Positions 28,782 to 47,237 of a stretch of 64,000 nucleotides of DNA are shown here, piece by piece. The notes under the pieces are model-generated. The model was given only the letters and a program-made list of their open reading frames with translations, had not been told where the DNA came from and did no database searches. A program made the position numbers and the translations under genes. This stretch comes from Phyllobacterium sp. 21LDTY02-6 (GTDB lineage Bacteria > Pseudomonadota > Alphaproteobacteria > Rhizobiales > Rhizobiaceae): assembly GCF_023554255.2 (NCBI RefSeq), contig NZ_JAMJWD020000004.1, positions 248,001 through 312,000 on the forward strand, read 5' to 3'. Each line of letters starts with the position of its first letter. Positions within the stretch are counted from its first letter, which is position 1.

Positions 28782-28790
28782 CGGCCGGTC

Positions 28791-31546: not shown

Positions 31547-31598
31547 TCGACCGGAAACCAGAATTAATGAAGTCGCGTTGAAAAATCAAGGGGAACTC

Positions 31599-32396: not shown

Positions 32397-32452
32397 CGTC
32401 ACGCTCAGGCGGGGCGCCACTGCCTCGCCGGGTCACCCGGAGCCGGATCGGC

Positions 32453-33124: not shown

Positions 33125-33861
33125 TGGCCGCCCTGATTTCCATTCGCGGGCTTAAGAAGGCCTTCGGTGACTATACCGTACTGCACGGCATCGATCTCGA
33201 TATCGCAGAAGGAGAGGTAGTTTGCGTCATCGGGCCATCCGGTTCCGGCAAATCGACGCTAATTCGCTGCATCAACCGCCTTGAACCCTTTGATCCAGAT
33301 AGCACCATCACGGTGGACGGCATCAAGGTCGAGCAGGGTGTCGCCCTTGCCAAAGTCCGGGCCGAGGTTGGCATGGTGTTTCAGTCGTTCAATCTCTTCC
33401 CGCATATGACGGTGCTGAGCAACGTGATGCTGGCGCCAATGCGCGTACGTGGAACGATGCCGGCAGCCGCGGAGCAAAAAGCACGTGACCTGCTCGCGCG
33501 TGTTGGCATTTCCGAGCAGGCGGAGAAGTTCCCGGCTCAATTGTCCGGTGGCCAGCAGCAGCGCGTTGCAATCGCCCGCGCCCTGGCCATGGAGCCGAAA
33601 GTGCTCCTGTTCGACGAACCGACATCTGCGCTCGACCCGGAGATGGTCGGAGAAGTGCTCGATGTCATGCGCACGCTGGCGGGTAGCGGTGTGACCATGG
33701 TGGTAGTGACCCACGAAATGGGCTTTGCCCGGCAGGTTGCTGACCGGGTTATCTTCATGGACGGTGGGCGTATCGTCGAAGAGGGACCGCCCGCACAGAT
33801 TTTCGACACGCCCCGGCAAGAACGGACTCGCGGCTTTTTGCGCGCCGTTCTCAATCATTGA
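33121..33861 (+). CDS. Polar amino-acid ABC transporter ATP-binding protein
   Basis: A 246-residue GlnQ-type ATPase: Walker [46 protein letters not shown]. It overlaps the permease gene by four bases. A second ATG directly follows the first (33124) and could be the actual start. Confidence 0.94.
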
Positions 33862-33888: not shown

Positions 33889-35163
33889 ATGACCAATGCA
33901 CAATTGGACCTCGACTTTGTGCGCAGCCAGTTTCCCGGTCTTGATCGCGGCTGGACCTTCTTCGACAACGCCGGCGGATCGCAGATCCTCAAAGGGGCAT
34001 TGGAGCGCATAAACACGTTCTTGATAGAGAAGAATGTGCAGATCGGCGGTTCCTACGCCGTTTCCCAGGATGCGGCCAAGGCGCTTCATGAGGCGCGTAT
34101 GGCGGCCATGTATCTCGTCAACGCGCACCGGCCGGAAGAAATCGTGTTCGGCAACTCCACGACGGCACTTCTACAGAATCTCGCGCGTGCAATGGCAAGC
34201 CAACTGGCACCGGGGGACGAAATCGTCGTGACGGTCAGCGATCACGAATCCAACATCGGGCCATGGGATAGGCTGCAGGCTGCGGGCGTAATTCTCAAGA
34301 TCTGGCCGTTAAATGTGCAGACGCTGGCACTGGATATCGCCGATCTTGAGCCTCTGCTCAGCGAGCGGACCAAAATGGTCTGCATCACCCATGCGTCGAA
34401 CATTCTTGGCTCGATCAATCCGATCCGTAAGATCGCCGACTTTGTCCACGCGCGCGGCATCAAACTGTGCGTCGATGCCGTGGCCTATGCGCCGCACAGG
34501 GCAATTGACGTCCAGGCTTTTGACGCTGACTACTATGTCTTCAGCCTCTACAAGACGTTCGGCCCGCACTACGCTGTAATGTATGGAAGATACGACTTGC
34601 TGCTGCAGCTCGACACTCTCTATCACTACTTCTACGGCAAGGATAAAGTGCCCGGCAAGCTCGAACCCGGAAACCCGAACTACGAACTGGCCTATTCGAC
34701 CTGCGGTATTGTCGATTATCTGTGCGAACTTGGCTCGCGCCTCGGGAAAACTGGCGGCACTCGCGAGAAGATTGAAGGCGCCTTCGAAGCGATCACGCAG
34801 CAGGAAGATGCGCTCACAGAAAGGCTGCTCTCCTATCTGCGATCACGCAACGACTGTCGGATAATTGGGCAGCCGTTCAACCGCGATAGCCAGCGCGTGG
34901 CAACGATTTCGTTCCGCTTCGACGGGCGTGATGCAGCTGAAATCTGCAAAGCGATCGATGAAGAGAAGATCGCCGTTCGGTTCGGCGATTTCCACTCCCG
35001 CCGTCTCGCCGAATACCTGGCTATTACAGATCGGGGCGGCGTGCTGCGCGTTTCGATGGTGCACTATAACACCCTCGAGGAGGTAGACCGTCTGACCGCT
35101 GCGCTGGATCGCATCCTGTCTGCCGGCGACGGGACAGATACGGAACTCCATCGTGCCGGATGA
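33889..35163 (+). CDS. Class V aminotransferase-fold PLP enzyme (VC1184-type, cysteine-desulfurase-like)
   Basis: A 424-residue fold-type I enzyme. FFDNAGGSQ near residue 24, the PLP-stacking His119 in SDHES, Asp196 in CVDAVAYAPH and the Schiff-base Lys222 in SLYKTFGPH are visible. The C-terminal segment that carries the catalytic Cys in true desulfurases (R-x-G-x-x-C) reads VRFGDFHS here, with no cysteine. The overall pattern is that of the VC1184 subfamily, of unproven function. Placed behind an amino-acid ABC transporter under a GntR regulator, a lyase, deaminase or aminotransferase acting on the imported compound is more likely than sulfur transfer. Confidence 0.85.
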   Translation: MTNAQLDLDFVRSQFPGLDRGWTFFDNAGGSQILKGALERINTFLIEKNVQIGGSYAVSQDAAKALHEARMAAMYLVNAHRPEEIVFGNSTTALLQNLARAMASQLAPGDEIVVTVSDHESNIGPWDRLQAAGVILKIWPLNVQTLALDIADLEPLLSERTKMVCITHASNILGSINPIRKIADFVHARGIKLCVDAVAYAPHRAIDVQAFDADYYVFSLYKTFGPHYAVMYGRYDLLLQLDTLYHYFYGKDKVPGKLEPGNPNYELAYSTCGIVDYLCELGSRLGKTGGTREKIEGAFEAITQQEDALTERLLSYLRSRNDCRIIGQPFNRDSQRVATISFRFDGRDAAEICKAIDEEKIAVRFGDFHSRRLAEYLAITDRGGVLRVSMVHYNTLEEVDRLTAALDRILSAGDGTDTELHRAG

Positions 35164-35191: not shown

Positions 35192-36130
35192 TCATCCGTT
35201 TAGAACGCCTGCAGCGTCAAGTGCGTCAGCAAGCGCGGCCCTCTCGGCGGGATCGAGCACCGCTATGGGTATTCTCGACGTGACAGACTGGAGCCGGCCG
35301 AGAATCTGAAGGCAAGTCTTGATCCTCAAAGCCGCGAGATGGCCCGGCGCACCGTAGATCGTACGCCCGAGACGGTAAAGCCGGTCGTGAATCTGGCGGC
35401 CGGTCGAAAGATCTCCCCGGATGACGGCTCGATCGAGCTCAACGATCATCTCGGGAACCACCGCTGCAAGGCTGACAAGGCTCCCTTCGCTTCCGATCGC
35501 AAAGCAGGGAAAGAGATGCTCGTCGCCCGATGCCATGACAGCGACATCCGGCCGCAACTGCCGGGAAAGCCTTCGTGTGGCGTCATAGGCGGCGGTTTCC
35601 CAGCTCCCCTCCTTTATTCCCACGACGCTCTCGATTTCCAGCAGTCGCGCCAAAACCCTCTCGGAGAACGCCGTCTTGCCGGCACTGACCGAACCCTGGA
35701 ACAGGAACAGCGGCAGACCACTTGCCTGCGCAACCGCGCGGTGATGCTCCACCACCAGACGCTCGTCGGCGCCAAGCGCCCATGAAAATGGTGGAAACAC
35801 CATCACCGCGTCGGCCCCGGCGCGGGCGGCATCCGCAGCCATTGCAGCAGCGATGTCGGTGCGCTCGCAATTGATCCCGGCAACGACCAGACTGTCGCCG
35901 CACACAGCCCTCGCCGTTTCGATGACGAGCACACTCTCGGCCCGGTCGAGTGCCAGATTTTCGCCGGCATGGCCATTGACGAGCAGACCTCGCATCCCAT
36001 CCGTGCCGGATACGAACGCCAGGTGCGCTGCGAGCTGGTCCGTGTCAATCTCACCGTCGCCGATCATCGGACATATGGTCGAGGCAAACACGCCACCGAA
36101 CGCGTGGCTTCGTTCCGCTGTCTGCACCAT
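35192..36130 (-). CDS. Dihydrodipicolinate synthase (DapA)-family lyase
   Basis: A 312-residue TIM-barrel class I lyase from ATG 36130 (MVQTAERSHAFGG), with AGGAAG just upstream. The Schiff-base Lys173 is in VVGIKEGS. The substrate-carboxylate motif is NGHAGE (residues 52-57) in place of G-T-T-G-E. The catalytic Tyr of DapA is replaced (LFLFQGS, Phe144). It is thus not a lysine-pathway enzyme but an aldolase, dehydratase or deaminase of a 2-oxo acid. It is the last gene of the fourteen-gene minus-strand group, next to the hydantoinase. A second family member with the same NGHAGE motif is at 41698. Confidence 0.85.
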   Translation of the reverse strand: MVQTAERSHAFGGVFASTICPMIGDGEIDTDQLAAHLAFVSGTDGMRGLLVNGHAGENLALDRAESVLVIETARAVCGDSLVVAGINCERTDIAAAMAADAARAGADAVMVFPPFSWALGADERLVVEHHRAVAQASGLPLFLFQGSVSAGKTAFSERVLARLLEIESVVGIKEGSWETAAYDATRRLSRQLRPDVAVMASGDEHLFPCFAIGSEGSLVSLAAVVPEMIVELDRAVIRGDLSTGRQIHDRLYRLGRTIYGAPGHLAALRIKTCLQILGRLQSVTSRIPIAVLDPAERAALADALDAAGVLNG

Positions 36131-36170
36131 GGCGCTTCCTGTACTTTCCTGGCATTGGATGTCCGGCATG

Positions 36171-37580
36171 TCAGTTGCCCACATATTCGCTGACACCGCG
36201 CGAGATAATCTGACCATGGCCCGGTTCTCCAAGCACCTGTCCATCGCGGTAGACGAGTTTGCCACGGACAAAGGTAGCAACCGGCCAGCCCTTGACCTCG
36301 AAACCTTCCCACGGGGTGTAGTCTGCGCCGTGATGCAGGATCTCCTGTCGCAGCGTCTCCTTGCGATTCGGATCCCAGAGGCAAATGTCGGCGTCAAAAC
36401 CAATGCCGATCGAGCCCTTGCGCGGATAGAGCCCATACATGCGGGCATGGTTGGTCGCCGACAGAGCAACGAAAGCCTGTGGCGTGATCCGCCCTTTCGA
36501 TATGCCTTCCGAAAACAGGATGGGCAGCCGCGTCTCTACACCGGGTATGCCATTCGGCACCCAGCGGAACGAGGACCGGGCCTTGGGATTGAGCTTGCCT
36601 TGCGGTGAATCGTATCGGAAGGGGCAATGATCCGATGAAAATGTCTGGAACACGCCCTGCGACAGGCCTTCCCAGATCGCCTTCTGGCTCATCACATCGC
36701 GAGGTGGCGGCGAGCACACATATTTGGCGCCCTCCATATCGAGTCCATCGAGGTCTTCCGCGGTAAGCGTAATGTATTGCGGGCAGGTCTCGGCATAGAC
36801 CTTGAGACCCCGCTGCTGTGCCCAGCGCACCTGTTCCATGGCCTCGGCGCCCGAGACATGGACGATCATGATCGGGACATCGACCAGTTGTGCATGGCTG
36901 ATCGCGCGGTGTGCTGCTTCGCGCTCGACGACTTCAGGGCGCGAGACGGCATGGTAGAACGGCGCAACCTTGCCCTCCTGTTCCAGGCGTTCGGCCAGGA
37001 AGCGGATGGTATCGTAGCCCTCGCAATGGACCATGACGAGTGCTTTCTCGCGTCGCGCAACGTCGAAGACGGCCAGCAATTCGCGATCGTTGAGCACGAG
37101 GTCGTCATAGGTCATGAAGACCTTGAACGAGGTATATCCGTCTTTCACCAGCGCCGGCAGTTCCTGGCCGAGCACCGCTGGCGTCGGATCGGAAATGATG
37201 AGATGAAAACTCGTATCGATGAAACACTGGTTCTCCGCCAGCTTGCGGTAGTCCTCGACAGATTGCCGCAGCGACTGGCCGCGCTTCTGCAGCGCGAAGG
37301 ACATGACGGTGGAATTGCCCCCTGCCGCCGCCGAGGCGGTCGCGGAAGCGAAGTCATCCGCCATAACGATATCGGGCCCGGAATCCTGGGCGATATGCAC
37401 GTGACTGTCGATGCCCCCGGGCATGACCCAGAGGCCTTCGGCATCGATTTCCTGCCGCGCACCGGTGATCTCGTTCGAGATGGCGACGATCCGGCCATCG
37501 GCAATACCGACGTCGCCCCTGTACATGTCGCTCGCAGTGACGATCGTCCCGCCGCGGATCGCAAGATCCAATTCGCTCAT
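36171..37580 (-). CDS. Dihydropyrimidinase / hydantoinase-family amidohydrolase
   Basis: A 469-residue cyclic amidohydrolase. The metal site is complete: His60 and His62 (GGIDSHVHI), the carbamylatable Lys153 (SFKVFMTY), His185 (VHCEGYD), His241 (VHVSG) and Asp317 (FSSDHCPF). It hydrolyses cyclic amides such as hydantoins, dihydropyrimidines or allantoin-like rings in the cytoplasm. The gene lies between the DUF3830 gene and a DapA-type lyase gene with 30- and 40-base gaps. It probably opens a ring in the compound imported by the ABC transporter at 38832-41277. Specificity cannot be read off. Confidence 0.92.
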   Translation of the reverse strand: MSELDLAIRGGTIVTASDMYRGDVGIADGRIVAISNEITGARQEIDAEGLWVMPGGIDSHVHIAQDSGPDIVMADDFASATASAAAGGNSTVMSFALQKRGQSLRQSVEDYRKLAENQCFIDTSFHLIISDPTPAVLGQELPALVKDGYTSFKVFMTYDDLVLNDRELLAVFDVARREKALVMVHCEGYDTIRFLAERLEQEGKVAPFYHAVSRPEVVEREAAHRAISHAQLVDVPIMIVHVSGAEAMEQVRWAQQRGLKVYAETCPQYITLTAEDLDGLDMEGAKYVCSPPPRDVMSQKAIWEGLSQGVFQTFSSDHCPFRYDSPQGKLNPKARSSFRWVPNGIPGVETRLPILFSEGISKGRITPQAFVALSATNHARMYGLYPRKGSIGIGFDADICLWDPNRKETLRQEILHHGADYTPWEGFEVKGWPVATFVRGKLVYRDGQVLGEPGHGQIISRGVSEYVGN

Positions 37581-37610
37581 GGCACACTCCCCGTTGTCTA
37601 TCCAGTTTAC

Positions 37611-38024
37611 TCAGATGCGTTCGAAGGCAATCGATTGGGCGCCTTCCCACAAAACCTTGGTTCCGATGTTGATCAGGCGTTCCTGCCCTTCAATGATCGT
37701 CAGAAAGTGGTTGCCGGCGAGCTGCCCCGCCATGCTGGCGAAATTGACCCGGCCATAGGCCAGCAGAATTTCCGTTTCACTGACGCCGCCGGGATAAAGA
37801 ATGATTTCACCGGGCGACGGATAGCTCGTGGCGTTCTCGAAGGGAACATCGAAATTCATGTCGCCCAGCGGCATCCAGACCCCCTGCCCACTCCAGCGCA
37901 CATGAATGACGCGTTCGGCAAACGGCAATCGGGACAGGAAACTCCCGCAAGTGGCGGGCGCCTTTTCCATTTCCAGCCGGGCGGGAAACACCTCTCCGGC
38001 AATGGTGATCTTCAATTCGGTCAA
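37611..38024 (-). CDS. DUF3830 cyclophilin-like protein
   Basis: A 137-residue protein starting at TTG 38024, which overlaps the stop of the upstream aldolase gene (TTGA) and has AAGGAAG 6 bases upstream. Sequence marks are APATCGSFLSRLPF at the start, HVRWSGQGVWMPLG, YPGGVSETEILLAYG and a final NIGTKVLWEGAQ: the cyclophilin-like fold of DUF3830/DUF3124-type small proteins. These commonly sit beside hydantoinases and amidohydrolases, but no activity is established. It is probably a substrate-binding or isomerase-like helper. An ATG start is not available nearby. Confidence 0.78.
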   Translation of the reverse strand: MTELKITIAGEVFPARLEMEKAPATCGSFLSRLPFAERVIHVRWSGQGVWMPLGDMNFDVPFENATSYPSPGEIILYPGGVSETEILLAYGRVNFASMAGQLAGNHFLTIIEGQERLINIGTKVLWEGAQSIAFERI

Positions 38025-38779
38025 GATATTCTTCCTTGTTCCAACAGATGTCGGGTCGCTCTGGCGCAGTCGGTCGCTGCGTCGGTCAGCAGGTTGATTT
38101 CGTTGGTTGCGACGATCAATCCGGCGCCGAGCGAGATGGCATGCGAGGACAGCAACGCGGCCGGCACGCCCATGACCCCGAACTCCTTGCCTCCCCTTGT
38201 GGCGGCCGCAGCCACCCGCGCAAAAGCGCCGATGACCTCCGGGTGCGTGAGATCGGCGGTATGGCCGAGGGACTGGGCAAGATCCTGCGAACCAATGATC
38301 AGTCCGTCCAGGCCATCGATTGCGCCAATGTCCTCGACGTCCGCCAGCGCCTGCGCGCTTTCGATCATGGCGTAAATCCTGAACTCGCGCTCGCAAGCCT
38401 CGATCAGATCCGTTGCCGGTACCGGCCGGAAAGACGCTGCGATCACCGGGCTCGGCAGCGACCGGTTGCCTTTCGGCGGAAACCTCAGCCTGTCGACGAT
38501 CGCTCGCGCCTCGGCCAGACTATCGACATGCGGGACGATGATGGCCTGAGCGCCGCAATCTGCGGCCCGCGTGAGGTGGTCGGAGGATCCCTTCGGCACC
38601 CGCACATGAACGGGAAAACCAGACATGCGGCCCGTAACGCAAAGGGTCGCCACCTCGCCGAGAGACATGGCGCCATGTTCCATGTCGGCGACCAGGAAAT
38701 CGAAGCCCGCCTCGCGGGCAACCGCCAGGATCTCAACGCTTCGAAACACGCAGGCGGCCATGCCGAGCGCTACACTCAT
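38021..38779 (-). CDS. HpcH/HpaI-family aldolase
   Basis: A 252-residue class II pyruvate-type aldolase from ATG 38779 (MSVALGMAACVFRS). Metal ligands are expected in MIESAQAL (Glu) and in the later GSQDLAQSLG (Asp). The catalytic Arg is in HVRVPKGSS and VADMEHGAMS is the usual opening strand. Such enzymes cleave 4-hydroxy-2-oxo acids or beta-hydroxyacyl-CoA esters. It couples to the DUF3830 gene by a four-base overlap, and lies 52 bases below the ABC ATPase gene. Confidence 0.9.
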   Translation of the reverse strand: MSVALGMAACVFRSVEILAVAREAGFDFLVADMEHGAMSLGEVATLCVTGRMSGFPVHVRVPKGSSDHLTRAADCGAQAIIVPHVDSLAEARAIVDRLRFPPKGNRSLPSPVIAASFRPVPATDLIEACEREFRIYAMIESAQALADVEDIGAIDGLDGLIIGSQDLAQSLGHTADLTHPEVIGAFARVAAAATRGGKEFGVMGVPAALLSSHAISLGAGLIVATNEINLLTDAATDCARATRHLLEQGRIS

Positions 38780-38831
38780 CTGCTTTTCCCCGTCAAATAC
38801 TTCATTGCAAGAATGCGGACGCAGCCCGCCA

Positions 38832-39605
38832 TTAGTGGATGATCTGATCAAGGAAATGACGGGCCCGTTCGCTCTGCGGCGCGGTGAAGAACTGTTCCGG
38901 CGGCGCCTGTTCGATGATGCGTCCCTTGTCCATGAACACGACACGGTCGGCGACCTCGCGGGCAAAGCCCATTTCATGCGTCACACAGATCATCGTCATG
39001 CCGTCACCCACAAGGGCCTTCATCGTTTCCAGCACTTCCTTGACCATTTCAGGATCGAGGGCCGAGGTGGGCTCGTCGAACAGCATGACCTTCGGCTGCA
39101 TGCACAGGGCACGGGCGATAGCCACGCGCTGCTGTTGGCCACCGGAGAGCTGTGCGGGAAACTTGCCGGCCTGGTCCGCGATGTGAACGCGCTCGAGCAG
39201 CGCGTGTGCACGAAGCTCGGCATCCTTGCGAGACAGACCATGCGCCGACATCGGCGCAAGAACGCAGTTTTCCAGAATGGTCATGTGCGGAAACAGATTG
39301 AAGCTTTGGAAGACCATTCCTGTCTCGCGCCGCACCCGATCAATCGAACGGGCGTCATGCTGCAGTTCGATACCATTGACGAAAATCAAGCCGTCATCAT
39401 GCTTCTCGATGTGATTGATACAACGGATCAGCGTGGATTTTCCGGAGCCGGAGGGTCCACATATGACGATACGCTCGCCCTTTTCCACCGTCAGGTCCAC
39501 TTCCGTCAGCGCGGTAAAATCACCATAGCGCTTGTAGACGGCTTCCATGCGCAAGGCGTAGCGGTCGGTTATCACCGGGCTTTCGGGTCGAGTAACGGAG
39601 TTCAT
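38832..39605 (-). CDS. Polar amino-acid ABC transporter ATP-binding protein
   Basis: A 257-residue GlnQ-type ATPase starting at ATG 39605 ([10 protein letters not shown]). Walker [33 protein letters not shown] and [13 protein letters not shown] are present. It is the third such ATPase in the window and closely similar in layout to the one at 33121. It follows the permease gene by 22 bases. Confidence 0.94.
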
Positions 39606-39627
39606 CGCAAACCTGCCTTTCTGAAAG

Positions 39628-40329
39628 TCAGCGCCGTTTGGCGGGAGTGGATTTGGCATTGCGGTCGAGCGACCGTCCGAAATGATGTTCCAGGCGCTGC
39701 TGCACCAGATCCCATATCGAAACCAGGAGCAGGTAGTAGACCGCAGCCGCTGCATAGACTTCGAGGATCTGGAAATTCTCCTGCATCAGCATATCGCTAC
39801 GCCGCATGATCTCCTCGACCGAGATGACGGAAGCCAGCGATGTTGCTTTCAGCAGTGAATTGACCGAATTGCCGAACGGCGGAATCATCAGTCGAAACGC
39901 CTGAGGCAGCATCACGCGCCAGAAGATCGTGCGCCGCGGAACGCTGAGTGCCCAGGCAGCCTCACGCTGTCCCTGCGGCACCGACATGAAGCCGCTGCGA
40001 ATGATTTCAGCGAGATACGACGCCTCGTGCAGGATAAGCCCCACCAGAGCCGAGCCGGTTACGCCGAGCTTGATGCCAAGCTGCGGCAGACCGGTGTAGA
40101 TGACGACCAGCTGGATCAGAAGCGGTGTGCCCCGGAAGAACCAGATGTAGAAACGCGCAAAGCCGTAGAGCAACAAGTTCGGCGACATTCGCATCAGTGC
40201 GATAATCATGCCCAATATCAGGCCGCCGACGACACCGGCCAGGGCCAGTCCGATGGTGACGCGGACGCCACCCAATAGGAAATAGTTGAAGAGGTAGTCG
40301 ACAAATGCCGCCGGATCAAAATAGCGCAT
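39628..40329 (-). CDS. Polar amino-acid ABC transporter permease
   Basis: A 233-residue HisM/GlnP-type permease from ATG 40329 ([12 protein letters not shown]), with AGGAG 6 bases upstream. The coupling loop [25 protein letters not shown] is near residue 140, followed by [14 protein letters not shown] single permease serves this transporter. Confidence 0.92.
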
Positions 40330-40437
40330 GTACAGCTCCTGTAGGGCACGCGGCACGAAAGTTCGATGCCGTTGAAGGCCTCAAATCCGCGCGTCTCGCG
40401 GTGGTTGATTACCGGGACGCGCGGGAGCGGATTGCGA

Positions 40438-41277
40438 TCAAGTCGGACCGGGGCCGGCGATCTCGACCGGCTCGTCGTCGTTGAGCGGCGTCAATCCGAA
40501 CTTGTCGAAAAGCGCCTTGTAGCTGCCGTCGGCCCGCATTTCGGTCGTGGCCTTGACGACAGCTTCGGCCACGGCCTTGTTGCGGAAGGACATTGCCGTG
40601 CGGGCCGCACCGAGGCCGGACAACACTTCCTTCACCCTTCCCTTGCTCACCAGATCGCGCGCGACACTGTCCACCAACAGCGCATTGTCGGTCTGCCCCG
40701 CGAGCAGGGCGCTGACAACATTGGTGGCGGTCGGGAATGTGCGCATTTCAACTGCCGTTGTGCCCTTGGCGACACTTTCGTCGCTGAACTTCTTGAGCCA
40801 GTTCATCTGGTAGGTGCTGACCTCGACTGCCGAGGACTTGCCAAGCAGTTCCTCGGGGCTGGAATAGGTGGCGGCACTGTCCGGTGCGACGACCACGGAG
40901 ACCGACTGGCGACCATTCGGAACCAGATACATCAGCTTGGAACGTTCCTCGGTCCAGAACATGCCGGTGTTCATCCCGTCGATGCGGCCGGCGGCCATGC
41001 CTGGGATCATCGCCGGGAAGTCCATACGGACAAGCTCGACCGGCATGCAGAGGCGTTTCGACAGCTCGGCCGCCATCTCGACATTAAGGCCCTGCAACTT
41101 GCCATCCTTGTCAACGAATTGCTGCGGCGGATTGGTCGGGTTGATCGATAGCTGCAGCTTGCCTTTTTCGACAAGGTTTTCATCGCTGATGACCGGCGCA
41201 GTACAGGCTGCGTTGGCGGCGACTGGTGAAAGTAACAGGGCGGCGAAGGCACTTGCCAGCATTAGGGATTTCATCAT
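40438..41277 (-). CDS. Polar amino-acid ABC transporter substrate-binding protein
   Basis: A 279-residue periplasmic protein with signal peptide MKSLMLASAFAALLLSPVAANAA. The mature region has LSINPTNPPQQFVDKDGKLQGLNVEMAAELSKRL, the amino-acid-binding family-3 pattern. It belongs to the transporter with 39628 and 38832. Gaps of 108 bases (to the permease) and 113 bases (to the upstream small protein) leave room for internal control. Confidence 0.92.
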   Translation of the reverse strand: MMKSLMLASAFAALLLSPVAANAACTAPVISDENLVEKGKLQLSINPTNPPQQFVDKDGKLQGLNVEMAAELSKRLCMPVELVRMDFPAMIPGMAAGRIDGMNTGMFWTEERSKLMYLVPNGRQSVSVVVAPDSAATYSSPEELLGKSSAVEVSTYQMNWLKKFSDESVAKGTTAVEMRTFPTATNVVSALLAGQTDNALLVDSVARDLVSKGRVKEVLSGLGAARTAMSFRNKAVAEAVVKATTEMRADGSYKALFDKFGLTPLNDDEPVEIAGPGPT

Positions 41278-41390
41278 GTTCTATCTCCGGAGTTGTGAAA
41301 CCTTGAATTCAGGTCTTTTCTTGTTTTTATTCCTTGTTCCGTGGCCACTCTCCCCAAGTGGCAACGGCCTAAGCACGTGGCACCCGCCGC

Positions 41391-41693
41391 TCAGTCGATC
41401 GAACGAAGCTGGATGCGGGTAAAGTTCCTGACATGAGGCTCAAAGGGACCGAAGCCCTTGACCCTGAGAAATTCGGGGGTCTCGAATGCCCACCGGCCTG
41501 CCACTTGGTAGACTGCAGCGTAACGAGGCCCGTCCCCGACGGATATATAGCGCTTGGCGGATAGCCAGCCGGGACAGGCAAGCAAGTCCGGAAAATGCGT
41601 CTCGACATACCAGTTGTTGAATGCAACCTCGTGTTCAGGATCGATGTCGACCCGCACGATATGGGTGAAAGCCTCCTCGTCCGTCATCGTCAT
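41391..41693 (-). CDS. Small ferredoxin-fold (dimeric alpha-beta barrel-like) protein
   Basis: A 100-residue protein beginning MTMTDEEAFTHIVRVDIDPEHE. The pattern of a first strand, EVAFNNWYVETHFPDLLACPGWLSAKRY, then YAAVYQVAG, is that of EthD/ABM-like dimeric barrels that bind or isomerise small substrates. The family is not recognised with certainty. The gene lies 4 bases below the DapA-type gene and is surely in the same operon. Confidence 0.7.
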   Translation of the reverse strand: MTMTDEEAFTHIVRVDIDPEHEVAFNNWYVETHFPDLLACPGWLSAKRYISVGDGPRYAAVYQVAGRWAFETPEFLRVKGFGPFEPHVRNFTRIQLRSID

Positions 41694-41697
41694 CTCG

Positions 41698-42651
41698 TCA
41701 GCACACGCGTATGTCGCCGGCCCTGCGGGCGGCTTCCACGACAGTTGCGATATTTGCAGCGATATCCACCTCGGTCGGCATCATCGGCGGCCTCGGCGCG
41801 GCATTCTGGATCACCCCCAGTGCTTTGAGACCGGCCTTCATGCGGGTATGCATGTCGATCAACGGCGACGGTCCGTAGATGGCGCGAACGATCGGGTAGA
41901 GCCGTTCGTTGACGGCCCGCATCGAGGCAAGGTCGCCGGCAGCGCTTGCCTGCCACAATTCAGCGAAAAGGTGCGGCGCGAGGCTGCCGAGGCCCGAGAG
42001 AATCCCGTCGGCGCCGACAGCCATCTGCGGCAGGAACCAGTTATAGTTCGATGCAAGGATCGACACATCCGGGCTTGCCTTTTTCACGGCCCGCCAGTTC
42101 TCGTCATAGGCAAGCATCGTGTCGCTGCCTTCCTTGATGGCGATCACGCCCTCGATCGCCGCCAGTTCACACAGCGTTTCGGTCGAATAGCCGTAGCCGG
42201 AAGCAACGGGATACTGGAAGAGCGAGACCGGTATGCCGATCGCTTCGGAAACTGCGCGTACATAGGCAACCGGTGCCCGCGAAGTGGCTGAAGCGCCGCC
42301 GCCGAGCGGACCCGGCGGGAACAGGACGGCACAATCTGCCCCGGCGTCCTCGGCCATCTTCGCCTCCGCGATCGCTTCGGCGGTGGAGGTCGCAATGATA
42401 CCGGCCAGGAGCGGCTTATGCGGAATATGTGCACGGGTGCGCTCCACCACCTCACGGCGCTCGGCAACGGTCAGCAGGCCGCCTTCGCCGGCGTGGCCAT
42501 TGACGAGTGCGGCGGTCACCCCGTCCGGCGCCACGCAATAGTCGAGCACGTATGAATAATCGTCCCAATCGATCGAAAAATCTTCGCGATAGGGCAGAAG
42601 CGTCGCGACAGTCAGGCCTTTCAGATCCGGTATCTTCATCATCGTCCTCAT
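41698..42651 (-). CDS. Dihydrodipicolinate synthase (DapA)-family lyase
   Basis: A 317-residue class I TIM-barrel lyase. Starts at 42651, 42642 and 42639 are all possible. The Schiff-base Lys173 is in IAIKEGSD and the carboxylate motif is NGHAGE (51-56). FQYP (145-148) differs from the YNVP of DapA. It shares NGHAGE and an AIYGPSP-like C-terminal segment with the protein at 35192, so the two are diverged paralogues in the same gene group. The likely reaction is an aldol cleavage, dehydration or deamination of a 2-oxo acid. It lies between the hydratase-like genes and the small barrel protein gene. Confidence 0.85.
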   Translation of the reverse strand: MRTMMKIPDLKGLTVATLLPYREDFSIDWDDYSYVLDYCVAPDGVTAALVNGHAGEGGLLTVAERREVVERTRAHIPHKPLLAGIIATSTAEAIAEAKMAEDAGADCAVLFPPGPLGGGASATSRAPVAYVRAVSEAIGIPVSLFQYPVASGYGYSTETLCELAAIEGVIAIKEGSDTMLAYDENWRAVKKASPDVSILASNYNWFLPQMAVGADGILSGLGSLAPHLFAELWQASAAGDLASMRAVNERLYPIVRAIYGPSPLIDMHTRMKAGLKALGVIQNAAPRPPMMPTEVDIAANIATVVEAARRAGDIRVC

Positions 42652-42659
42652 GCTGCTTC

Positions 42660-43094
42660 TCAGGCCCCCGTTTTCTTGCGGGGGAATTTCAGCGTTGCTT
42701 CGGCCTTCAGCACTTCCAGCCCCTCGGTATTGCGGGCACTCGCCTGCCAGATGATCGTGCGGTTCTCCTCCCGTTTCTCGGCGATCCAGACCTCGAAGGT
42801 GATGGTGTCGCCATAGACCACAGGCCCGGTAAACCAGAAGCGATCTTCGATGGAGATACCGACCACGCCGACAAGTTCGCTCGTCAATATGCTGGTGCAG
42901 AGGCCCGCGACCATGATGCCGGGCGCCAGGCGTTTGCCGAAGCGCGTTGCGCCCGCATAGACCTCGTCGACATGAACGGGACCGAAATCACCGGTCGCCG
43001 CGATATAGAGCGCACCATCGGCCTCGGTGATCGTCTTGGATATCGCTGTCCTGTCTCCGACATTCAGGTCGTCGAAGGATTTGAAGTCGTACAT
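42660..43094 (-). CDS. MaoC-like (R)-hydratase subunit with catalytic Asp/His
   Basis: A 144-residue single-hotdog protein from ATG 43094 (MYDFKSFDDLNVG). The hydratase motif GDFGPVHVD is present, giving catalytic Asp36 and His41, followed by RFGKRLAPGIMVAGL. MaoC-type hydratases add water to trans-2-enoyl-CoA. Its partner is probably the next gene upstream (43099), which has lost these residues, making a heterodimer. The gap between the genes is 4 bases. Confidence 0.87.
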   Translation of the reverse strand: MYDFKSFDDLNVGDRTAISKTITEADGALYIAATGDFGPVHVDEVYAGATRFGKRLAPGIMVAGLCTSILTSELVGVVGISIEDRFWFTGPVVYGDTITFEVWIAEKREENRTIIWQASARNTEGLEVLKAEATLKFPRKKTGA

Positions 43095-43098
43095 CGGC

Positions 43099-43512
43099 TC
43101 AACCCCTGGCCGCGAAGGGAACGAGGCGTGCAGCGCCGGAGATGATTTCCTCACCGGTTCCGCTGTTGATACAGGAGACCTTGCAGATGGCGTCGTCGCC
43201 CTCGATCGCGGCAATCTCAGCACTTGCCTGCACGGACTGGCCGATGATGACGGGAGCGAGGAAAGACAGTTCAATGGAGCCAATGCGACGATCGGGGCCA
43301 CCGAGACGGTTGAGGCAGGTGGTTGCAAGAGCGCTGACGGCAAGCTCGAAGGATACCATGCCCATGGCGCCCGCCTTTTCTGCAGCGCGCGCATCGACAT
43401 AAAGCGGGCCGAGATTGCCGCTGATACCGGTGAACATTGCCTGTTCGGCGACCGTCATCGTCTTTCGGAAGGAAAAGGTCGCACCGACCGTCAGGGGGGA
43501 TTGCGTCGTCAT
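43099..43512 (-). CDS. MaoC-like hotdog protein lacking the catalytic Asp/His
   Basis: A 137-residue hotdog protein. At the place of the hydratase motif it reads SGNLGPLYVD: Asn33 instead of Asp and Tyr38 instead of His. It therefore should not hydrate by itself and probably serves as the structural half of a heterodimer with the product of 42660-43094. The rest (GMVSFELAVSALATTCL, IELSFLAPVIIGQSVQ) matches the family well. It sits 12 bases below the acyl-CoA dehydrogenase gene. Confidence 0.83.
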   Translation of the reverse strand: MTTQSPLTVGATFSFRKTMTVAEQAMFTGISGNLGPLYVDARAAEKAGAMGMVSFELAVSALATTCLNRLGGPDRRIGSIELSFLAPVIIGQSVQASAEIAAIEGDDAICKVSCINSGTGEEIISGAARLVPFAARG

Positions 43513-43524
43513 CAGAAGTCTTCC

Positions 43525-44688
43525 TTAGATATTGAGGCCGTTCTTGATCGTGCTGCGGGCAATCAGCATGCGATGAATTTCGGACGTTCCGTCATAGATG
43601 CGGGTGACGCGTGCATCGCGATACATCCGCTCCAGGGGCAGTTCCTTGGTAAAGCCCATCCCGCCGAACACCTGGATGGCGCGGTCGACGACACGGCCCT
43701 GCATTTCGGATGCCGCAACCTTGATCATCGACACCTTGTCGCGTGGCTCCATGCCCTGATCGATTTCCCATGCGGCGTTGAGCACCATCATCTTGACGCC
43801 AAATATCTCGATGGCGCTGTCTGCAATCAGCTTCTGCACCATCTGGAAATCGCCTATCGCCTGGCCGAACTGCCTGCGCTCGCTGGCATAGGTACGCATC
43901 ATTTCGAGCGCACGGGTCGCCATACCGACAGCGCGGGCGCCGATATGCGCAAGTCGAATTTCGAGGACGCTCTTCATGATCAGTCTAAAGCCGTTTCCGA
44001 CCTCGCCGAGCACGGCGGATGCTGGAATGCGGCAGTTCTCGAAAGCAAGTTCCGCATGACCGTAGCCCCTATGCCCCATCATCGGCTGGGTGCGGGCCAC
44101 CTTGAAGCCGGCCGATCCCTTGTCGACCAGGAAAAGCGTGATGCCGCCGCGAGCCCGCTTTTCCTTGTCCGTCAGCGCCATGACGATCACATAGTCGGCA
44201 ATATCGCCATCGCTGATGAAATGCTTGGTGCCATTGAGCACCCATTCATCGCCATCGAGCTCCGCCGTCGTGCTGATCGAGGCCGCATCCGACCCCGCGC
44301 CCGGCTCGGTGATCGCCATGGCGCAAATCTTGTCGCCCCGCACGGTCGGCAGAAGATATTTCTCGCGCTGATCGCCCTCGCAGGCCAGCAACATCGGATA
44401 TACCTGCCCGAACACGCGGCGGATCAAGGCATCCGAGGTCTTGCCGAACTCCTCTTCGACCAGGCAATGATCGATGCAGGAAAGGCCGCCGCCACCGACA
44501 TCTTCCGGCATGTTCATCGCATAAAGGCCGAGCTGCTGCGCCTTGGCTTTGACGCGTGCCAGCTTCTCGGGCGGAATGCGGGCGTCGTGTTCCGTCGCTT
44601 CCTCAAGCGGCTGAACCTCGGTCTCAACGAATTTGCGGACAGTATCGACCAGCAGCCGGCTATCGTCCGTCAGCGAAAAGTTTATCAT
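43525..44688 (-). CDS. Acyl-CoA dehydrogenase
   Basis: A 387-residue FAD flavoprotein from ATG 44688 (MINFSLTDDSR), with GGAAGA upstream. Signatures are AITEPGAGSDAAS (FAD/substrate), RQFGQAIGDFQ and QVFGGMGFTKELPLERMYRDAR. The C-terminal catalytic segment reads RIYDGTSEIHRM: the base position that is Glu in medium-chain enzymes (IYEGT) is Asp366. It introduces a double bond in an acyl-CoA and passes electrons to ETF. Between the CoA-transferase and hydratase genes, it completes a CoA-activation, oxidation, hydration sequence. Confidence 0.92.
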   Translation of the reverse strand: MINFSLTDDSRLLVDTVRKFVETEVQPLEEATEHDARIPPEKLARVKAKAQQLGLYAMNMPEDVGGGGLSCIDHCLVEEEFGKTSDALIRRVFGQVYPMLLACEGDQREKYLLPTVRGDKICAMAITEPGAGSDAASISTTAELDGDEWVLNGTKHFISDGDIADYVIVMALTDKEKRARGGITLFLVDKGSAGFKVARTQPMMGHRGYGHAELAFENCRIPASAVLGEVGNGFRLIMKSVLEIRLAHIGARAVGMATRALEMMRTYASERRQFGQAIGDFQMVQKLIADSAIEIFGVKMMVLNAAWEIDQGMEPRDKVSMIKVAASEMQGRVVDRAIQVFGGMGFTKELPLERMYRDARVTRIYDGTSEIHRMLIARSTIKNGLNI

Positions 44689-44714
44689 CTTGTCTTCCAA
44701 TCGGCCCGAAGGCG

Positions 44715-45935
44715 TTATCCCTGATGTGATCGACCCGTTTCGGCCTGTCCGATCACACCCATTTCGATCAGCCTGTCCTGCCTCTCGGCCGACATGCCCA
44801 GTTCCGTCATGATCTCCCGACTGTCCGTTCCGGCATAAAGCGGCATGCGCCGCATGGCTGGCGAACCCCCGTCATAGCGCAGGGGATGGTTGATCAGTGT
44901 CGCTGTCTTGCCGTTAACCTCGATCTCGCCGAAAACGCCCATATGCCTTGCCTGCGGATCGTCCAACAGATCCTCGTAAGACTGCACGCGCTCAAACCAG
45001 ACACCGTGGCTGTTGAACAGGCTCTCGACATCGGCAAAACAGAGCGGTGCAAGGATCCCGGCCAGGGTCGCCGCATAGCGGTCCCGCTCGGCATAGCGGT
45101 CGATCGAGCGCAACTGCCGCAATATGTCGCTGTCAAGCGCATCGGCAAGCTTCGTGGCATCGTTCATCGACAGCACGATGCGCGCATCGGCAAGCGTGTA
45201 GAGCCCGTAAGGCGCATCATGATACCAGCTGCCGCAATTGCGACCGCGCTTGAGCTTGCTCGCCCGATCGGGCGCGGCATAATATTTGGTCAGCGCTTCC
45301 ACCTGAAGGTCGATCGCAGCCGCAAACAGGCTCGATTCCACTCTGGCTCCCTCGCCTGTCTGCAGCCGGCGCACATAGGCGCCGAGCACGCCCATGGCAA
45401 GCAGCGAGCCGCCATGCTGGTCGATTACGGCAGCGCCAACGACCGAGGGACCTTCCTCCCCGCCGCCGGTTGCCGCCACCAGTCCCGAACGCGCCTGCAT
45501 CAGCAGATCCTGGCCCGGCCGCTTGGCTGCCGGCCCGGTTGCCCCAAGCCCGGAGGCAGACGCATAGATGATCGTCGGATTGAACGCGCGCACCGCCTCA
45601 TAGCCAAGACCCAACCTATCGAGCACCCCGGGCCGGTAGTTCTCCACCAGCACGTCGGCGTCCGCGATCAATGCGCGTGCGATCGCCAGGCCTTCTTCGG
45701 ATTTCAGGTCGATGGCGATCGACCGCTTGTTGCGGTTTACCGCCAGTGAAAAGGCACTGACATCGGTAACCCAGGAATTGCCTCCGGACCAGTGCCGCTC
45801 GAAGGCGCCTTTGAGCGGCTCGACCTTGATGACATCGGCCCCCATATCGGCAAGGTACTGGCAGCAGGCCGGTCCCTGCAGATAGTGGCAGAAACTGATG
45901 ACCTTCATCCCGATCTTCATCGAACCCGCCATCAT
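44715..45935 (-). CDS. Family III (CaiB/BaiF) CoA-transferase, copy B
   Basis: A 406-residue CoA-transferase. LADMGADVIKVEP, VNRNKRSIAIDLK, VENYRPGVLDRLGLGYE and RPGQDLLMQARSGL are standard. The catalytic Asp is Asp172 in AAVIDQHGGS. Its ATG overlaps the stop of the upstream CoA-transferase gene by four bases (ATGA). The two tandem copies share a plan but are clearly diverged, as in heterodimeric enzymes such as benzylsuccinate CoA-transferase. It activates a carboxylic acid with CoA from a donor such as succinyl-CoA. Confidence 0.92.
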   Translation of the reverse strand: MMAGSMKIGMKVISFCHYLQGPACCQYLADMGADVIKVEPLKGAFERHWSGGNSWVTDVSAFSLAVNRNKRSIAIDLKSEEGLAIARALIADADVLVENYRPGVLDRLGLGYEAVRAFNPTIIYASASGLGATGPAAKRPGQDLLMQARSGLVAATGGGEEGPSVVGAAVIDQHGGSLLAMGVLGAYVRRLQTGEGARVESSLFAAAIDLQVEALTKYYAAPDRASKLKRGRNCGSWYHDAPYGLYTLADARIVLSMNDATKLADALDSDILRQLRSIDRYAERDRYAATLAGILAPLCFADVESLFNSHGVWFERVQSYEDLLDDPQARHMGVFGEIEVNGKTATLINHPLRYDGGSPAMRRMPLYAGTDSREIMTELGMSAERQDRLIEMGVIGQAETGRSHQG

Positions 45936-47119
45936 TGCACTCCGACGGCGGATGCCGCGAAAAGCGCCTCGATCTCGGCCTCGCTGTAGCCTGCCTCGCC
46001 AAGGACCTCGCGGGTCTGGGCGCCGAGGCGCTGCGGCACAAGCTTGATTTCGGGAGACTTGCCGTCATAGCGGGCCGGGTGCATGACCATCGTCACGTTC
46101 TGGCCATAAGCGCCTTCGACGGTCTTGAAGGCTTGCATGTGCTCAAGCTGCGGGTCGGCCCGCAGGTCTTCATAGTCCTGAACCGGCGCATGCCAGATCT
46201 TGCCGGCCTCGAGCCCGGGCAGCCAGTCTGAAGTCGCCTTTTCCTTGAGCGTGTCAGCGACGAGACGGGTAATCTCCTCGCGACGGGCGAAACTGTCGGC
46301 ATCCGTGAAATCTTCGAGCGCCTTTATGCCGAGCGCCGCAGCAAGCGCCCTGGGCGCCGCCATCGACAGGGCGAGATGACCGTCGGCTGTCGCGTGGATG
46401 CCATAGGGACCGGGGGAAAACCACGACGCGATACCCGAGGGACCGCGCGAAGTGGGTGACGCGGCACCATTCAGCCAGGCCGTCAGCGGCTCGACCTGCA
46501 AGTCGATTGCCGCGAGGTAGAGATTCACCTCGACAAGTCGGCCAGCCCCTGTCTTCGCCTTGGCAAACAGAGCGGCCAGGATCGCCATCGCATAGAGCGA
46601 GGCTGCGTGCTGGTCGACGATCACGGCCCCCACGGGCGTCGGCGCTCCGTCTGCCCGGCCGGTACGAGCAGCGAGACCGGACATCGCCTGCAGGAGCAGG
46701 TCCTGGCCCGGCCGGTCGCGATAGGGACCGTCGCCGCCGAAACCCGTCGCGACAGCATATATGATGCCGGGATTGATGGCTTTCAGCGCTTCGTAACCGA
46801 GACCGAGCTTTTCCATCGTGCCGGGCCGAAAATTCTCCATCACCACGTCGGCCGTCGCAACCAGCTTCTTCACGGCCGCGAGCCCTTGCGGGTTCTTCAG
46901 GTCGACCGCAATGCTGCGCTTGTTGCGGCCAGTCGCCAGATGATTGACGCTGTCTCCTTCGACGAAACGGTTGGCAACAGCCCAATTGCGCTGGAAAGCG
47001 CCCTCGACAGGCTCCACGGCGATGACATCCGCTCCCAGATCGGCGAGCGTCTGGGCAGCGAGCGGACCTGCCAGGAAGTGATTGAAGCTGAGGATCTTAA
47101 CGCCGCTCAAGAGAGTCAT
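45932..47119 (-). CDS. Family III (CaiB/BaiF) CoA-transferase, copy A
   Basis: A 395-residue CoA-transferase from ATG 47119 (MTLLSGVKILSFNHFLAGP). GTG 47131 is an alternative start. Catalytic Asp169 is in VIVDQHAAS, and MENFRPGTMEKLGLGYE and RPGQDLLLQAMSGLAARTG are family marks. It is the first gene of the fourteen-gene minus-strand group. The divergent LysR gene and three palindromes lie immediately upstream. It is coupled to copy B by a four-base overlap, suggesting equimolar production and a possible heterodimer. Confidence 0.92.
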   Translation of the reverse strand: MTLLSGVKILSFNHFLAGPLAAQTLADLGADVIAVEPVEGAFQRNWAVANRFVEGDSVNHLATGRNKRSIAVDLKNPQGLAAVKKLVATADVVMENFRPGTMEKLGLGYEALKAINPGIIYAVATGFGGDGPYRDRPGQDLLLQAMSGLAARTGRADGAPTPVGAVIVDQHAASLYAMAILAALFAKAKTGAGRLVEVNLYLAAIDLQVEPLTAWLNGAASPTSRGPSGIASWFSPGPYGIHATADGHLALSMAAPRALAAALGIKALEDFTDADSFARREEITRLVADTLKEKATSDWLPGLEAGKIWHAPVQDYEDLRADPQLEHMQAFKTVEGAYGQNVTMVMHPARYDGKSPEIKLVPQRLGAQTREVLGEAGYSEAEIEALFAASAVGVQ

Positions 47120-47237
47120 CGACACACGCACGCCTTCTAGCTCTGACTATTTTTTACTCAGAGGCAAGCCGTGCCGCCGAATGAGGCAATTATAGGAGGG
47201 CGAATTCATACATGACAATATCGACGTCAATTATATT

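What the first reader, a model, noticed from the sequence alone, without database searches (positions are those of the whole stretch)
35192..47119. Fourteen-gene catabolic group of unknown substrate with its own LysR, ABC transporter, ring-opening and CoA steps
Fourteen consecutive minus-strand genes combine two family III CoA-transferases, acyl-CoA dehydrogenase, two hotdog hydratase subunits, two DapA-type lyases, a small barrel protein, a polar amino-acid ABC transporter, an HpcH-type aldolase, DUF3830 and a hydantoinase. Several are coupled by 4-base overlaps. The set implies import of a zwitterionic, possibly cyclic amide compound, ring opening, CoA activation, desaturation, hydration and aldol cleavage. 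I know no characterised pathway with this exact set.
Basis: partly seen in the sequence, partly recalled or inferred. Interest (0 to 1): 0.75.

Follow-up and report, generated by a model that had tools for sequence, protein, structure and literature searches.

The report
Two-module catabolic operon, substrate unknown
A bacterium carries a real fourteen-gene operon, built of known enzyme families in a combination not found in the papers searched, that probably imports and breaks down a nitrogen-containing ring compound; which compound is still unknown.

Summary
The exact order recurs in Rhizobium smilacinae and Pararhizobium polonicum; elsewhere the enzymes recur in other orders and with another importer. 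The set is modular. Module A (CoA-transferase III, acyl-CoA dehydrogenase, MaoC pair, DapA1, small barrel) is complete in 63 of 80 loci; module B (hydantoinase, HpcH, DapA2, sometimes DUF3830) joins it in 22; beside complete module A the ABC importer occurs in 38 loci, a TRAP importer in 24, both in none. In one genus the close hydantoinase occurs in 25 of 26 DapA1 carriers against 30 of 120 others. The locus extends further: the converging operon GntR | ABC importer, class V PLP enzyme (30748-35163) has a hydantoinase directly downstream in 17 of 21 same-family loci, and its PLP enzyme is nearest the C-C bond enzymes FGM3 and UstD. Best reading: an accessory pathway of import, ring opening, CoA activation, desaturation, hydration and cleavage. 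Substrate undetermined.

The parts
45932..47119 (-). CoA-transferase family III, CoAT1 (module A)
   Evidence: PF02515 312 bits on the 399-aa ORF; Asp169 in 69 of 69 aligned sequences
44715..45935 (-). second CoA-transferase family III, CoAT2; 4-base overlap with CoAT1
   Evidence: PF02515 293 bits; present in only 7 of 80 loci
43525..44688 (-). acyl-CoA dehydrogenase with Asp where the family usually has the catalytic Glu
   Evidence: PF00441/02770/02771; Asp366 in 70 of 71 aligned sequences; that Glu is usual is recalled (the structure search at E 1e-80 gave no alignment)
43099..43512 (-). MaoC hot-dog subunit a, dyad lost (probably non-catalytic partner)
   Evidence: PF01575 40 bits; Asn at the Asp position in 68 of 70
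42660..43094 (-). MaoC hot-dog subunit b, dyad intact (catalytic hydratase subunit)
   Evidence: PF01575 65 bits on the longer ORF; Asp36 and His41 in 70 of 70
41698..42651 (-). DHDPS-superfamily protein DapA1: Schiff-base Lys kept, GHAGE motif, Phe for the usual Tyr
   Evidence: PF00701 123 bits; (n=85; GHAGE partly selected by the search pattern)
41391..41693 (-). 100-aa dimeric alpha-beta-barrel-type protein (ABM/EthD/muconolactone-isomerase-like fold)
   Evidence: no Pfam or NCBIfam hit; AlphaFold pLDDT 94.0; Foldseek hits incl. EthD family and methylmuconolactone methylisomerase
40438..41277 (-). ABC solute-binding protein, polar amino-acid family 3
   Evidence: PF00497 87 bits; NCBIfam cystine and Lys/Arg/Orn binders below cut-off
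39628..40329 (-). ABC permease
   Evidence: PF00528 82 bits
38832..39605 (-). ABC ATPase
   Evidence: PF00005 130 bits
38021..38779 (-). HpcH/HpaI metal-dependent aldolase (module B)
   Evidence: PF03328 94 bits; HpaI 113 bits, below cut-off 368.8; E34, H35, R60, E140, D166 in 27 of 27
37611..38024 (-). DUF3830 protein, probably cyclophilin-like fold; 4-base overlap with HpcH (TTG start)
   Evidence: PF12903 105 bits; low-confidence model, pLDDT 62.8, hits 3kop and KslB
36171..37580 (-). D-hydantoinase/dihydropyrimidinase-type cyclic amidohydrolase
   Evidence: PRK13404 735 bits over cut-off 647 and TIGR02033 517 over 393; metal ligands and Tyr in 31 of 31
35192..36130 (-). second DHDPS-superfamily protein DapA2, GHAGE motif
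   Evidence: PF00701 113 bits on the longer ORF
47216..47234 (.). conserved footprint ATAATYRA-N5-ATRTTG between LysR and CoAT1; overlaps the -35 hexamer of an 11/12 promoter-like site on the minus strand
   Evidence: 12 invariant columns of 24 in 7 sequences, at most 3 in 200 shuffles; promoter scan; position read
47309..48232 (+). divergent LysR regulator
   Evidence: PF00126, PF03466; a LysR homolog at 40% identity or more in 38 of 80 loci
33889..35163 (+). class V PLP enzyme (annotated elsewhere as cysteine-desulfurase-like; FGM3/UstD relative), converging on the operon
   Evidence: TIGR01976 366 bits over cut-off 352; best solved relatives FGM3 (E 7.6e-84) and UstD (2.8e-58)
31497..33861 (+). 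second polar amino-acid ABC importer: SBP 31497-32396, permease 32453-33124, ATPase 33121-33861
   Evidence: SBP best NCBIfam match is the Lys/Arg/Orn family, 162 bits, below cut-off 256
30748..31443 (-). GntR/FCD regulator of the converging operon
   Evidence: PF07729, PF00392; same place in the 11 plasmid loci L200-L210

Best explanation
This is an accessory catabolic island for a small nitrogen-containing acid or amino-acid-like compound and a cyclic amide form of it. Module A is the lower pathway: its own importer (ABC here, TRAP elsewhere) brings in an organic acid; family III CoA-transferase makes the acyl-CoA; the dehydrogenase desaturates it; a heteromeric MaoC hydratase (one active, one inactive subunit) adds water; the small barrel protein isomerises an intermediate and the DapA1 Schiff-base enzyme (dehydratase, deaminase or lyase) finishes. 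Module B feeds it: the dedicated hydantoinase opens a five- or six-membered cyclic amide, and HpcH and DapA2 process carbon side chains; DUF3830 acts on the ring compound or an imine. The converging GntR-controlled ABC/class V PLP operon is a second entry point whose relatives usually carry their own hydantoinase; here it borrows the operon's. LysR controls the 14 genes from one divergent promoter. Shown by sequence: the families, most catalytic residues, conserved linkage, the swap of importers, the footprint. Inferred: every reaction, the order of steps, co-transcription and the substrate class.
For: Complete module A in 63 of 80 loci; with DapA2, HpcH and hydantoinase in 22. Same enzymes in another order and with TRAP in L056, L057/L105 and L135. 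ABC 38, TRAP 24, both 0, neither 1 of 63. In the genus of G657 (probably Bradyrhizobium), a hydantoinase of at least 73% identity in 25 of 26 genomes with DapA1 against 30 of 120 without (counted by hand from the lists). Module A without a close hydantoinase in the two Paracoccus genomes searched and in the Thioclava p3 region shown. The genome has a separate, better-scoring dihydropyrimidinase next to a TIGR01879 gene, so this one is not the housekeeping copy. PLP enzyme followed by a hydantoinase in 17 of 21 same-family loci and 10 of 11 plasmid loci fetched. Footprint. Catalytic residues.
Against: DapA1 and the window's DapA2 lack features of typical aldolases. In Bradyrhizobium loci the hydantoinase is within 10 kb in only 2 of 37, four of 24 searched genomes have none at E 1e-140, and 30 of 120 genomes of the genus of G657 have it without DapA1. 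The converging PLP operon was not seen beside L058 or L059 within the stretch held. Importers are not always alternatives on looser similarity: L042 (module B) has both kinds nearby, and Thioclava p3 has a TRAP gene set with a 27% identical binding protein next to the ABC genes. No carbamoylase is in the operon. Four of 21 PLP-enzyme loci lack an adjacent hydantoinase.
Confidence: 0.6

Rival explanations
1. The operon is a merger of two separate pathways with unrelated substrates (a CoA pathway for an acid, and a hydantoinase/aldolase pathway) that merely share a transcript. (Lowered from 0.25 to 0.2 after the genus control.)
For: Module A stands alone in two Paracoccus genomes and in the Thioclava p3 region; module B stands without module A in L042; the close hydantoinase occurs without DapA1 in 30 of 120 genomes.
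Against: 22 of 80 loci, in at least three gene orders and with two importer types, keep both; 25 of 26 DapA1 carriers of one genus hold the close hydantoinase even where it is distant.
Confidence: 0.2
2. It is a variant hydantoin- or pyrimidine-utilisation operon: the hydantoinase opens a hydantoin or dihydropyrimidine and the carbamoyl product is consumed by standard enzymes.
For: The hydantoinase is over the cut-offs of TIGR02033 and PRK13404; a relative at 66% identity sits with a CN hydrolase and a hydantoin racemase-family gene (L172).
Against: No carbamoylase or racemase among the 14 genes; the genome has another dihydropyrimidinase beside a TIGR01879 amidohydrolase on another contig; CoA genes have no role in those pathways (recalled).
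Confidence: 0.1
3. The PLP enzyme and hydantoinase form a bacterial degradative counterpart of the Fusarium FGM3/FGM2 pair: retro-aldol cleavage of a gamma-hydroxy amino acid to alanine and an aldehyde, cyclisation and oxidation to a cyclic amide, ring opening by the hydantoinase; the CoA module then degrades the acid.
For: FGM3 is the nearest solved relative (E 7.6e-84). FGM3 cleaves the Cbeta-Cgamma bond of 4-hydroxyarginine to give L-Ala, and FGM2, a metallo-dependent amidohydrolase, opens glycociamidine (passages of PMC10967133; PMC10367076). PLP enzyme and hydantoinase are adjacent in 17 of 21 loci; the neighbouring SBP is nearest Lys/Arg/Orn binders.
Against: FGM2's relation to hydantoinases was not tested. 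The window's PLP enzyme has Phe two residues after the Lys, where FGM3 has Tyr and UstD has Phe (that this Tyr is the paper's Y225 is my inference). No dehydrogenase for the oxidation is in either operon. Guanidinoacetate has no beta carbon for the acyl-CoA dehydrogenase, so a longer analogue would be needed. Occurrence of gamma-hydroxyarginine in legumes is recalled; passages of PMC11018352 speak only of 5-hydroxyarginine.
Confidence: 0.15

Closest known systems
Carnitine/crotonobetaine Cai set (CaiA, CaiB, CaiD)
   Same: Family III CoA-transferase plus acyl-CoA dehydrogenase plus hydratase acting on a zwitterionic acid (Cai function recalled).
   Different: Scores far below the curated cut-offs: L-carnitine CoA-transferase 80 and 88 of 413 bits, crotonobetainyl-CoA dehydrogenase 194 of 540. 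MaoC instead of a crotonase; hydantoinase and lyases added.
Itaconate degradation RipABC
   Same: CoA-transferase, MaoC hydratase and HpcH-family lyase together (recalled).
   Different: RipB 25.8 of 340 bits and RipC 25.3 of 375; an acyl-CoA dehydrogenase and hydantoinase are added and HpcH is nearest the HpaI type.
Hydantoin utilisation (D-hydantoinase, carbamoylase, racemase)
   Same: A D-hydantoinase with complete metal site; L172 shows such a cluster around a 66% identical enzyme.
   Different: No carbamoylase or racemase in the operon; CoA module and aldolases instead.
Fusarium fusaoctaxin FGM3/FGM2
   Same: PLP enzyme of the FGM3/UstD group linked to a metal-dependent cyclic amidohydrolase.
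   Different: There biosynthetic and fungal; here with importers and a CoA module. Homology of FGM2 to the hydantoinase not tested.
Parallel 'set 2' (family I CoA-transferase, ACAD2, 4-OT-type tautomerase, MaoC2, DapA3)
   Same: Same logic beside DapA1 in 46 of 80 loci (at least 4 of 5 genes).
   Different: Unrelated CoA-transferase family, and a tautomerase in the place of the small barrel protein; the window's genome has only a weak partial match to its CoA-transferase (28%).

Membership tests
D-hydantoinase / dihydropyrimidinase family | score over curated cut-off | tested here: met
   TIGR02033 517 of 393.25 bits; PRK13404 735 of 647
D-hydantoinase / dihydropyrimidinase family | binuclear metal ligands HxH, carboxylated Lys, H, H, D and catalytic Tyr (roles recalled) | tested here: met
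   H60, H62, K153, Y158, H185, H241, D317 in 31 of 31
Hydantoin-utilisation cluster | N-carbamoyl amino-acid hydrolase in the cluster | tested here: not met
   none among the 14 genes; the genome's TIGR01879 gene over cut-off is on contig C5
Hydantoin-utilisation cluster | hydantoin racemase in the cluster | tested here: not met
   the six PF01177 matches of the genome lie on contigs C1, C6 and C9, none on C7
Reductive pyrimidine catabolism | dihydropyrimidinase next to beta-ureidopropionase | tested here: not met
   such a pair is at C5:396669-399294, not in the window
Itaconate Rip pathway | RipB and RipC equivalogs | tested here: not met
   25.8 of 340 and 25.3 of 375 bits
Carnitine Cai pathway | CaiA and CaiB equivalogs | tested here: not met
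   194 of 540; 80 and 88 of 413 bits
Family III CoA-transferase | Pfam PF02515 and catalytic Asp | tested here: met
   (Asp169 in 69 of 69); aligned to the Asp of solved relatives
Canonical DHDPS/NAL aldolase | Schiff-base Lys | tested here: met
   K173 in 85 of 85 (DapA1) and 66 of 66 (DapA2)
Canonical DHDPS/NAL aldolase | TTGE/STGE motif and catalytic Tyr (roles recalled) | tested here: not met
   GHAGE in both; Phe in 84 of 85 DapA1; DapA2 mixed, Phe 29 and Tyr 37 of 66, the window Phe
FGM3/UstD PLP lyases | sequence relationship | tested here: met
   E 7.6e-84 to FGM3 and 2.8e-58 to UstD; desulfurases weaker, from 2.1e-45
FGM3/UstD PLP lyases | C-C bond cleavage or formation giving or using a gamma-hydroxy amino acid | not testable with these tools
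   needs purified enzyme
Cysteine desulfurase | catalytic Cys in the RxGxxC loop (position recalled) | tested here: not met
   His or Tyr at that position in 23 of 23 rows; two rows (L195, L197) have a Cys four residues further

The most novel reading that the evidence does not exclude
The locus is a degradative route built on an FGM3-type PLP C-C lyase and a cyclic amidohydrolase: a gamma-hydroxy, probably guanidino, amino acid is imported, cut to alanine and an aldehyde, cyclised and oxidised to a cyclic amide, ring-opened by the hydantoinase, and the resulting acid is degraded by a CoA pathway with a half-dead MaoC pair and a DapA-family enzyme of new activity, DUF3830 acting on the cyclic imine or amide.
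Probability: 0.12. Interest if true: 0.78.

Novelty: new variant of a known kind. Interest (0 to 1): 0.5.

Why it matters
Module A is complete in rhizobia, Bradyrhizobium and many other Alphaproteobacteria (63 of 80 loci), while Castellaniella, Advenella and Rubrivivax loci have DapA1 with the parallel set instead. No paper found here assigns a substrate, so the set marks a natural compound that many bacteria probably eat. Solving it would give functions to DUF3830, to two unusual DapA-type enzymes and to a small barrel protein, and one growth screen and a handful of purified enzymes would test it.

Tried and rejected
Housekeeping pyrimidine pathway: rejected, because a better-scoring dihydropyrimidinase with a TIGR01879 neighbour sits on another contig. 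Itaconate and carnitine systems: rejected on curated cut-offs. Parallel set 2 in this genome: its CoA-transferase gave only a weak partial match (28%); the other four set 2 genes were not searched there. Substrate from the TRAP binding protein: 75 solved relatives at E 1e-20, not decisive. Substrate from the ABC binding protein: only general amino-acid binders. The DUF3830 model is poor (pLDDT 62.8, residues 65-102 under 50), so its KslB hit is a lead only; the KslB paper search listed 10 of 32 papers and none was read for it. A Tyr-to-Phe change in the PLP enzyme as a marker of a lost hydantoinase: dropped, because L236 has Phe with an adjacent hydantoinase. No tree was built; transfer history is untested.

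Limits of the counts. Relatives were found by DapA1 patterns, so loci without DapA1 are missed and GHAGE in DapA1 is partly selected; of 147 confirmed loci the best 80 were kept, 37 of them Bradyrhizobium, so rows are not independent. Presence rests on identity thresholds I chose, within 10-kb flanks and up to contig ends. To I gave 32 of the 80 loci; 29 could be searched. In the genus control the one DapA1 carrier without a hit, G751, may be the genome with a partial hydantoinase (inference). The promoter scan finds no more sites than shuffles (4 against 4.3); only position and footprint count. The footprint control used mononucleotide shuffles, which also remove relatedness, and 7 of 12 sequences, three of them from the window's family. 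The DUF3830 survey took neighbourhoods in 18 of the 45 genomes with a match; 2 of the 18 hold the whole enzyme set. Of 515 plasmid records with a PLP-enzyme match I fetched 11 of the best 15. Of 166 hydantoinase neighbours listed, 10 were scanned.


Full report
OBSERVATION. ORF lists and start sites give fourteen consecutive minus-strand genes between 35192 (end of the last) and 47119 (ATG of the first). My starts give two 4-base overlaps and eleven gaps of 4-113 bases. The divergent LysR gene is at 47309-48232. The tools name neither the organism nor its family; by the closest named relatives it is Rhizobiaceae (inference).

IS IT A UNIT? One scan of genome contigs with a four-sequence DapA1 profile returned 80 loci (147 confirmed, best 80 kept; 37 are Bradyrhizobium). 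Scanning them with all genes gave: module A (CoAT1, ACAD, MaoCa, MaoCb, DapA1, small barrel) complete in 63 of 80, 30 of them outside Bradyrhizobium; module A plus DapA2, HpcH and hydantoinase in 22; plus DUF3830 in 7. R. smilacinae (L058) and P. polonicum (L059) have all fourteen in the same order at 75-96% identity. Retained company despite reshuffling is the main evidence for a functional group. The operon is accessory: of four same-genus genomes sampled, three have no DUF3830 match and one a 30% match.

MODULES. Of 63 complete module A loci, 38 have the ABC importer, 24 a TRAP binding protein, none both, and one (L134, a 9-kb contig) neither. This suggests interchangeable importers for one substrate, though looser matches of both kinds lie near each other in L042 and in Thioclava p3. 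The two Paracoccus genomes L098 and L099 had no hydantoinase at E 1e-140, whereas Paracoccus L108 and L130 have one in the locus; the Thioclava p3 region holds module A and the ABC importer without module B. So module A seems to have a substrate of its own and module B looks like a feeder. Of 27 Bradyrhizobium loci given to, 24 could be searched: 19 genomes have a full-length hydantoinase at 74-75% identity, one a partial one, four none; it lies within 10 kb in only 2 of 37 loci. A control in 146 genomes of the genus of G657 (probably Bradyrhizobium): 26 have DapA1 at 69-73% identity, and 25 of these have a hydantoinase of at least 73%; of the 120 others 30 have one (my count from the lists). 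Relatedness within the genus is not corrected for. In the positions listed, 17 of the 25 pairs lie on one contig within 50 kb. L168 shows the hydantoinase beside 'set 2' and module A.

A PARALLEL SET. In 46 of 80 loci at least four of five genes of another set flank DapA1: family I CoA-transferase, ACAD2, a 4-OT-type tautomerase (weak Pfam score, 23 bits against cut-off 22), MaoC2, DapA3; 33 of the 46 also have complete module A. It repeats the logic with an unrelated CoA-transferase. The tautomerase fills the place that the small barrel protein has in module A, which suggests an isomerase role for the latter (inference). The barrel protein's model is confident (pLDDT 94.0) and matches dimeric ferredoxin-like proteins, including methylmuconolactone methylisomerase and an EthD-family protein.

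RESIDUES. CoAT1 Asp169 in 69 of 69, hydantoinase metal ligands in 31 of 31, HpcH active-site residues in 27 of 27. MaoCb keeps its dyad in 70 of 70, MaoCa has Asn for Asp in 68 of 70, so a heteromer with one active subunit is likely. ACAD has Asp at the usual Glu in 70 of 71. DapA1 and DapA2 keep the Schiff-base Lys but have GHAGE for the TTGE-type motif of the aligned solved structures, and DapA1 has Phe for the Tyr in 84 of 85; DapA2 is mixed, 29 Phe and 37 Tyr of 66. These argue against an ordinary pyruvate aldolase for DapA1. What the residues do is recalled knowledge of the families.

REGULATION. The gap between LysR and CoAT1 contains ATAATYRA-N5-ATRTTG-like sequence in rhizobial, Bradyrhizobium, Paracoccus and Thioclava loci: 12 invariant columns in the best 24, against at most 3 in 200 mononucleotide shuffles of the same seven sequences. 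In the window it is at 47216-47234 and overlaps the -35 hexamer of an 11/12 promoter-like site reading into the operon. Promoter-like sites as such are not in excess.

BEYOND THE COORDINATES. The plus-strand operon SBP, permease, ATPase, class V PLP enzyme (31497-35163) with divergent GntR converges on the finding, with 28 bases between the two stop codons. In Rhizobiaceae plasmids the order GntR | SBP, permease, ATPase, PLP enzyme, hydantoinase holds in 10 of 11 loci fetched; in the eleventh (L207) a hydantoinase 79% identical to the window's sits on the other side of GntR. In a sample of 297 same-family genomes, 22 hold the PLP enzyme at E 1e-150; of the 21 besides the window, 17 have a hydantoinase directly downstream. 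L042, L171 and L173 link the same genes to a hydantoinase and, in L042, to HpcH, DapA2 and DUF3830. So the window's PLP operon seems to have lost its own hydantoinase and lies against an operon that supplies one (inference). This arrangement was not seen in L058 or L059 within the stretch held.

THE PLP ENZYME. It scores over the cut-off of TIGR01976, a family of hypothetical function. Its nearest solved relatives are FGM3 and UstD. It has no Cys at the aligned place where desulfurases carry it. From passages read: FGM3 cleaves the Cbeta-Cgamma bond of 4-hydroxyarginine giving L-Ala, and FGM2, a metallo-dependent amidohydrolase, opens glycociamidine to guanidinoacetate (PMC10967133); FGM3 does a retro-aldol with Y225 as possible base (PMC10367076); UstD makes a nucleophilic aminoacrylate from aspartate that adds to carbonyls (PMC13397446). 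A PLP C-C enzyme paired with a cyclic amidohydrolase is therefore a known combination, and gives the most concrete chemical hypothesis here. It is not proven: the window enzyme, L236 and L238 have Phe where FGM3 has Tyr two residues after the Lys, and FGM2's family was not tested.

WHAT IT IS NOT. The genome has another dihydropyrimidinase (601 bits against 517) next to a TIGR01879 amidohydrolase on contig C5. The Rip and Cai equivalogs fail by wide margins. No carbamoylase or racemase is in the operon.

LITERATURE. Seven searches looked for the set or its parts. DUF3830 occurs in 0 papers of the library; none of the titles and abstracts listed described this set; one search listed only 8 of 403. 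Four papers were seen in passages, none in full. The library is open access only, so absence there is weak evidence.

VERDICT. Mechanism at the level of reaction types is moderately likely; the substrate is not known.

Noticed in passing
window 30748-35163: Converging GntR / ABC / class V PLP operon whose homologs usually end in their own hydantoinase (17 of 21).
   Followed up: yes
L058-L137 (80 loci): ABC and TRAP importers exclude each other beside complete module A: 38, 24, both 0 of 63.
   Followed up: partly
L070:403-5699, L104, L107, L117 and others: Second parallel set (family I CoA-transferase, ACAD2, tautomerase, MaoC2, DapA3) beside DapA1.
   Followed up: partly
window 37611-38024: DUF3830 model, low confidence, matches a cyclophilin-like protein (3kop) and the Pictet-Spenglerase KslB.
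   Followed up: no
window 26735-30107: ABC importer with a D-serine dehydratase-like PLP protein (BhcC 69 bits, cut-off 690), perhaps another amino-acid catabolic operon.
   Followed up: no
L043:1815-10019: Hydantoinase and DUF3830 with ABC genes, a DapA-type gene and a fused 2Fe-2S/FAD oxidase of sarcosine-oxidase type: another hydantoinase-linked amino-acid route.
   Followed up: no
L070:14704-19423: NtaA/DmoA-type flavin monooxygenase, NMT1/THI5-type ABC importer and class II aldolase next to DapA2 in this Bradyrhizobium locus.
   Followed up: no
L169:7637-9310: A 74% identical hydantoinase stands next to an arylmalonate decarboxylase/Asp-Glu racemase family gene and an ABC ATPase.
   Followed up: no
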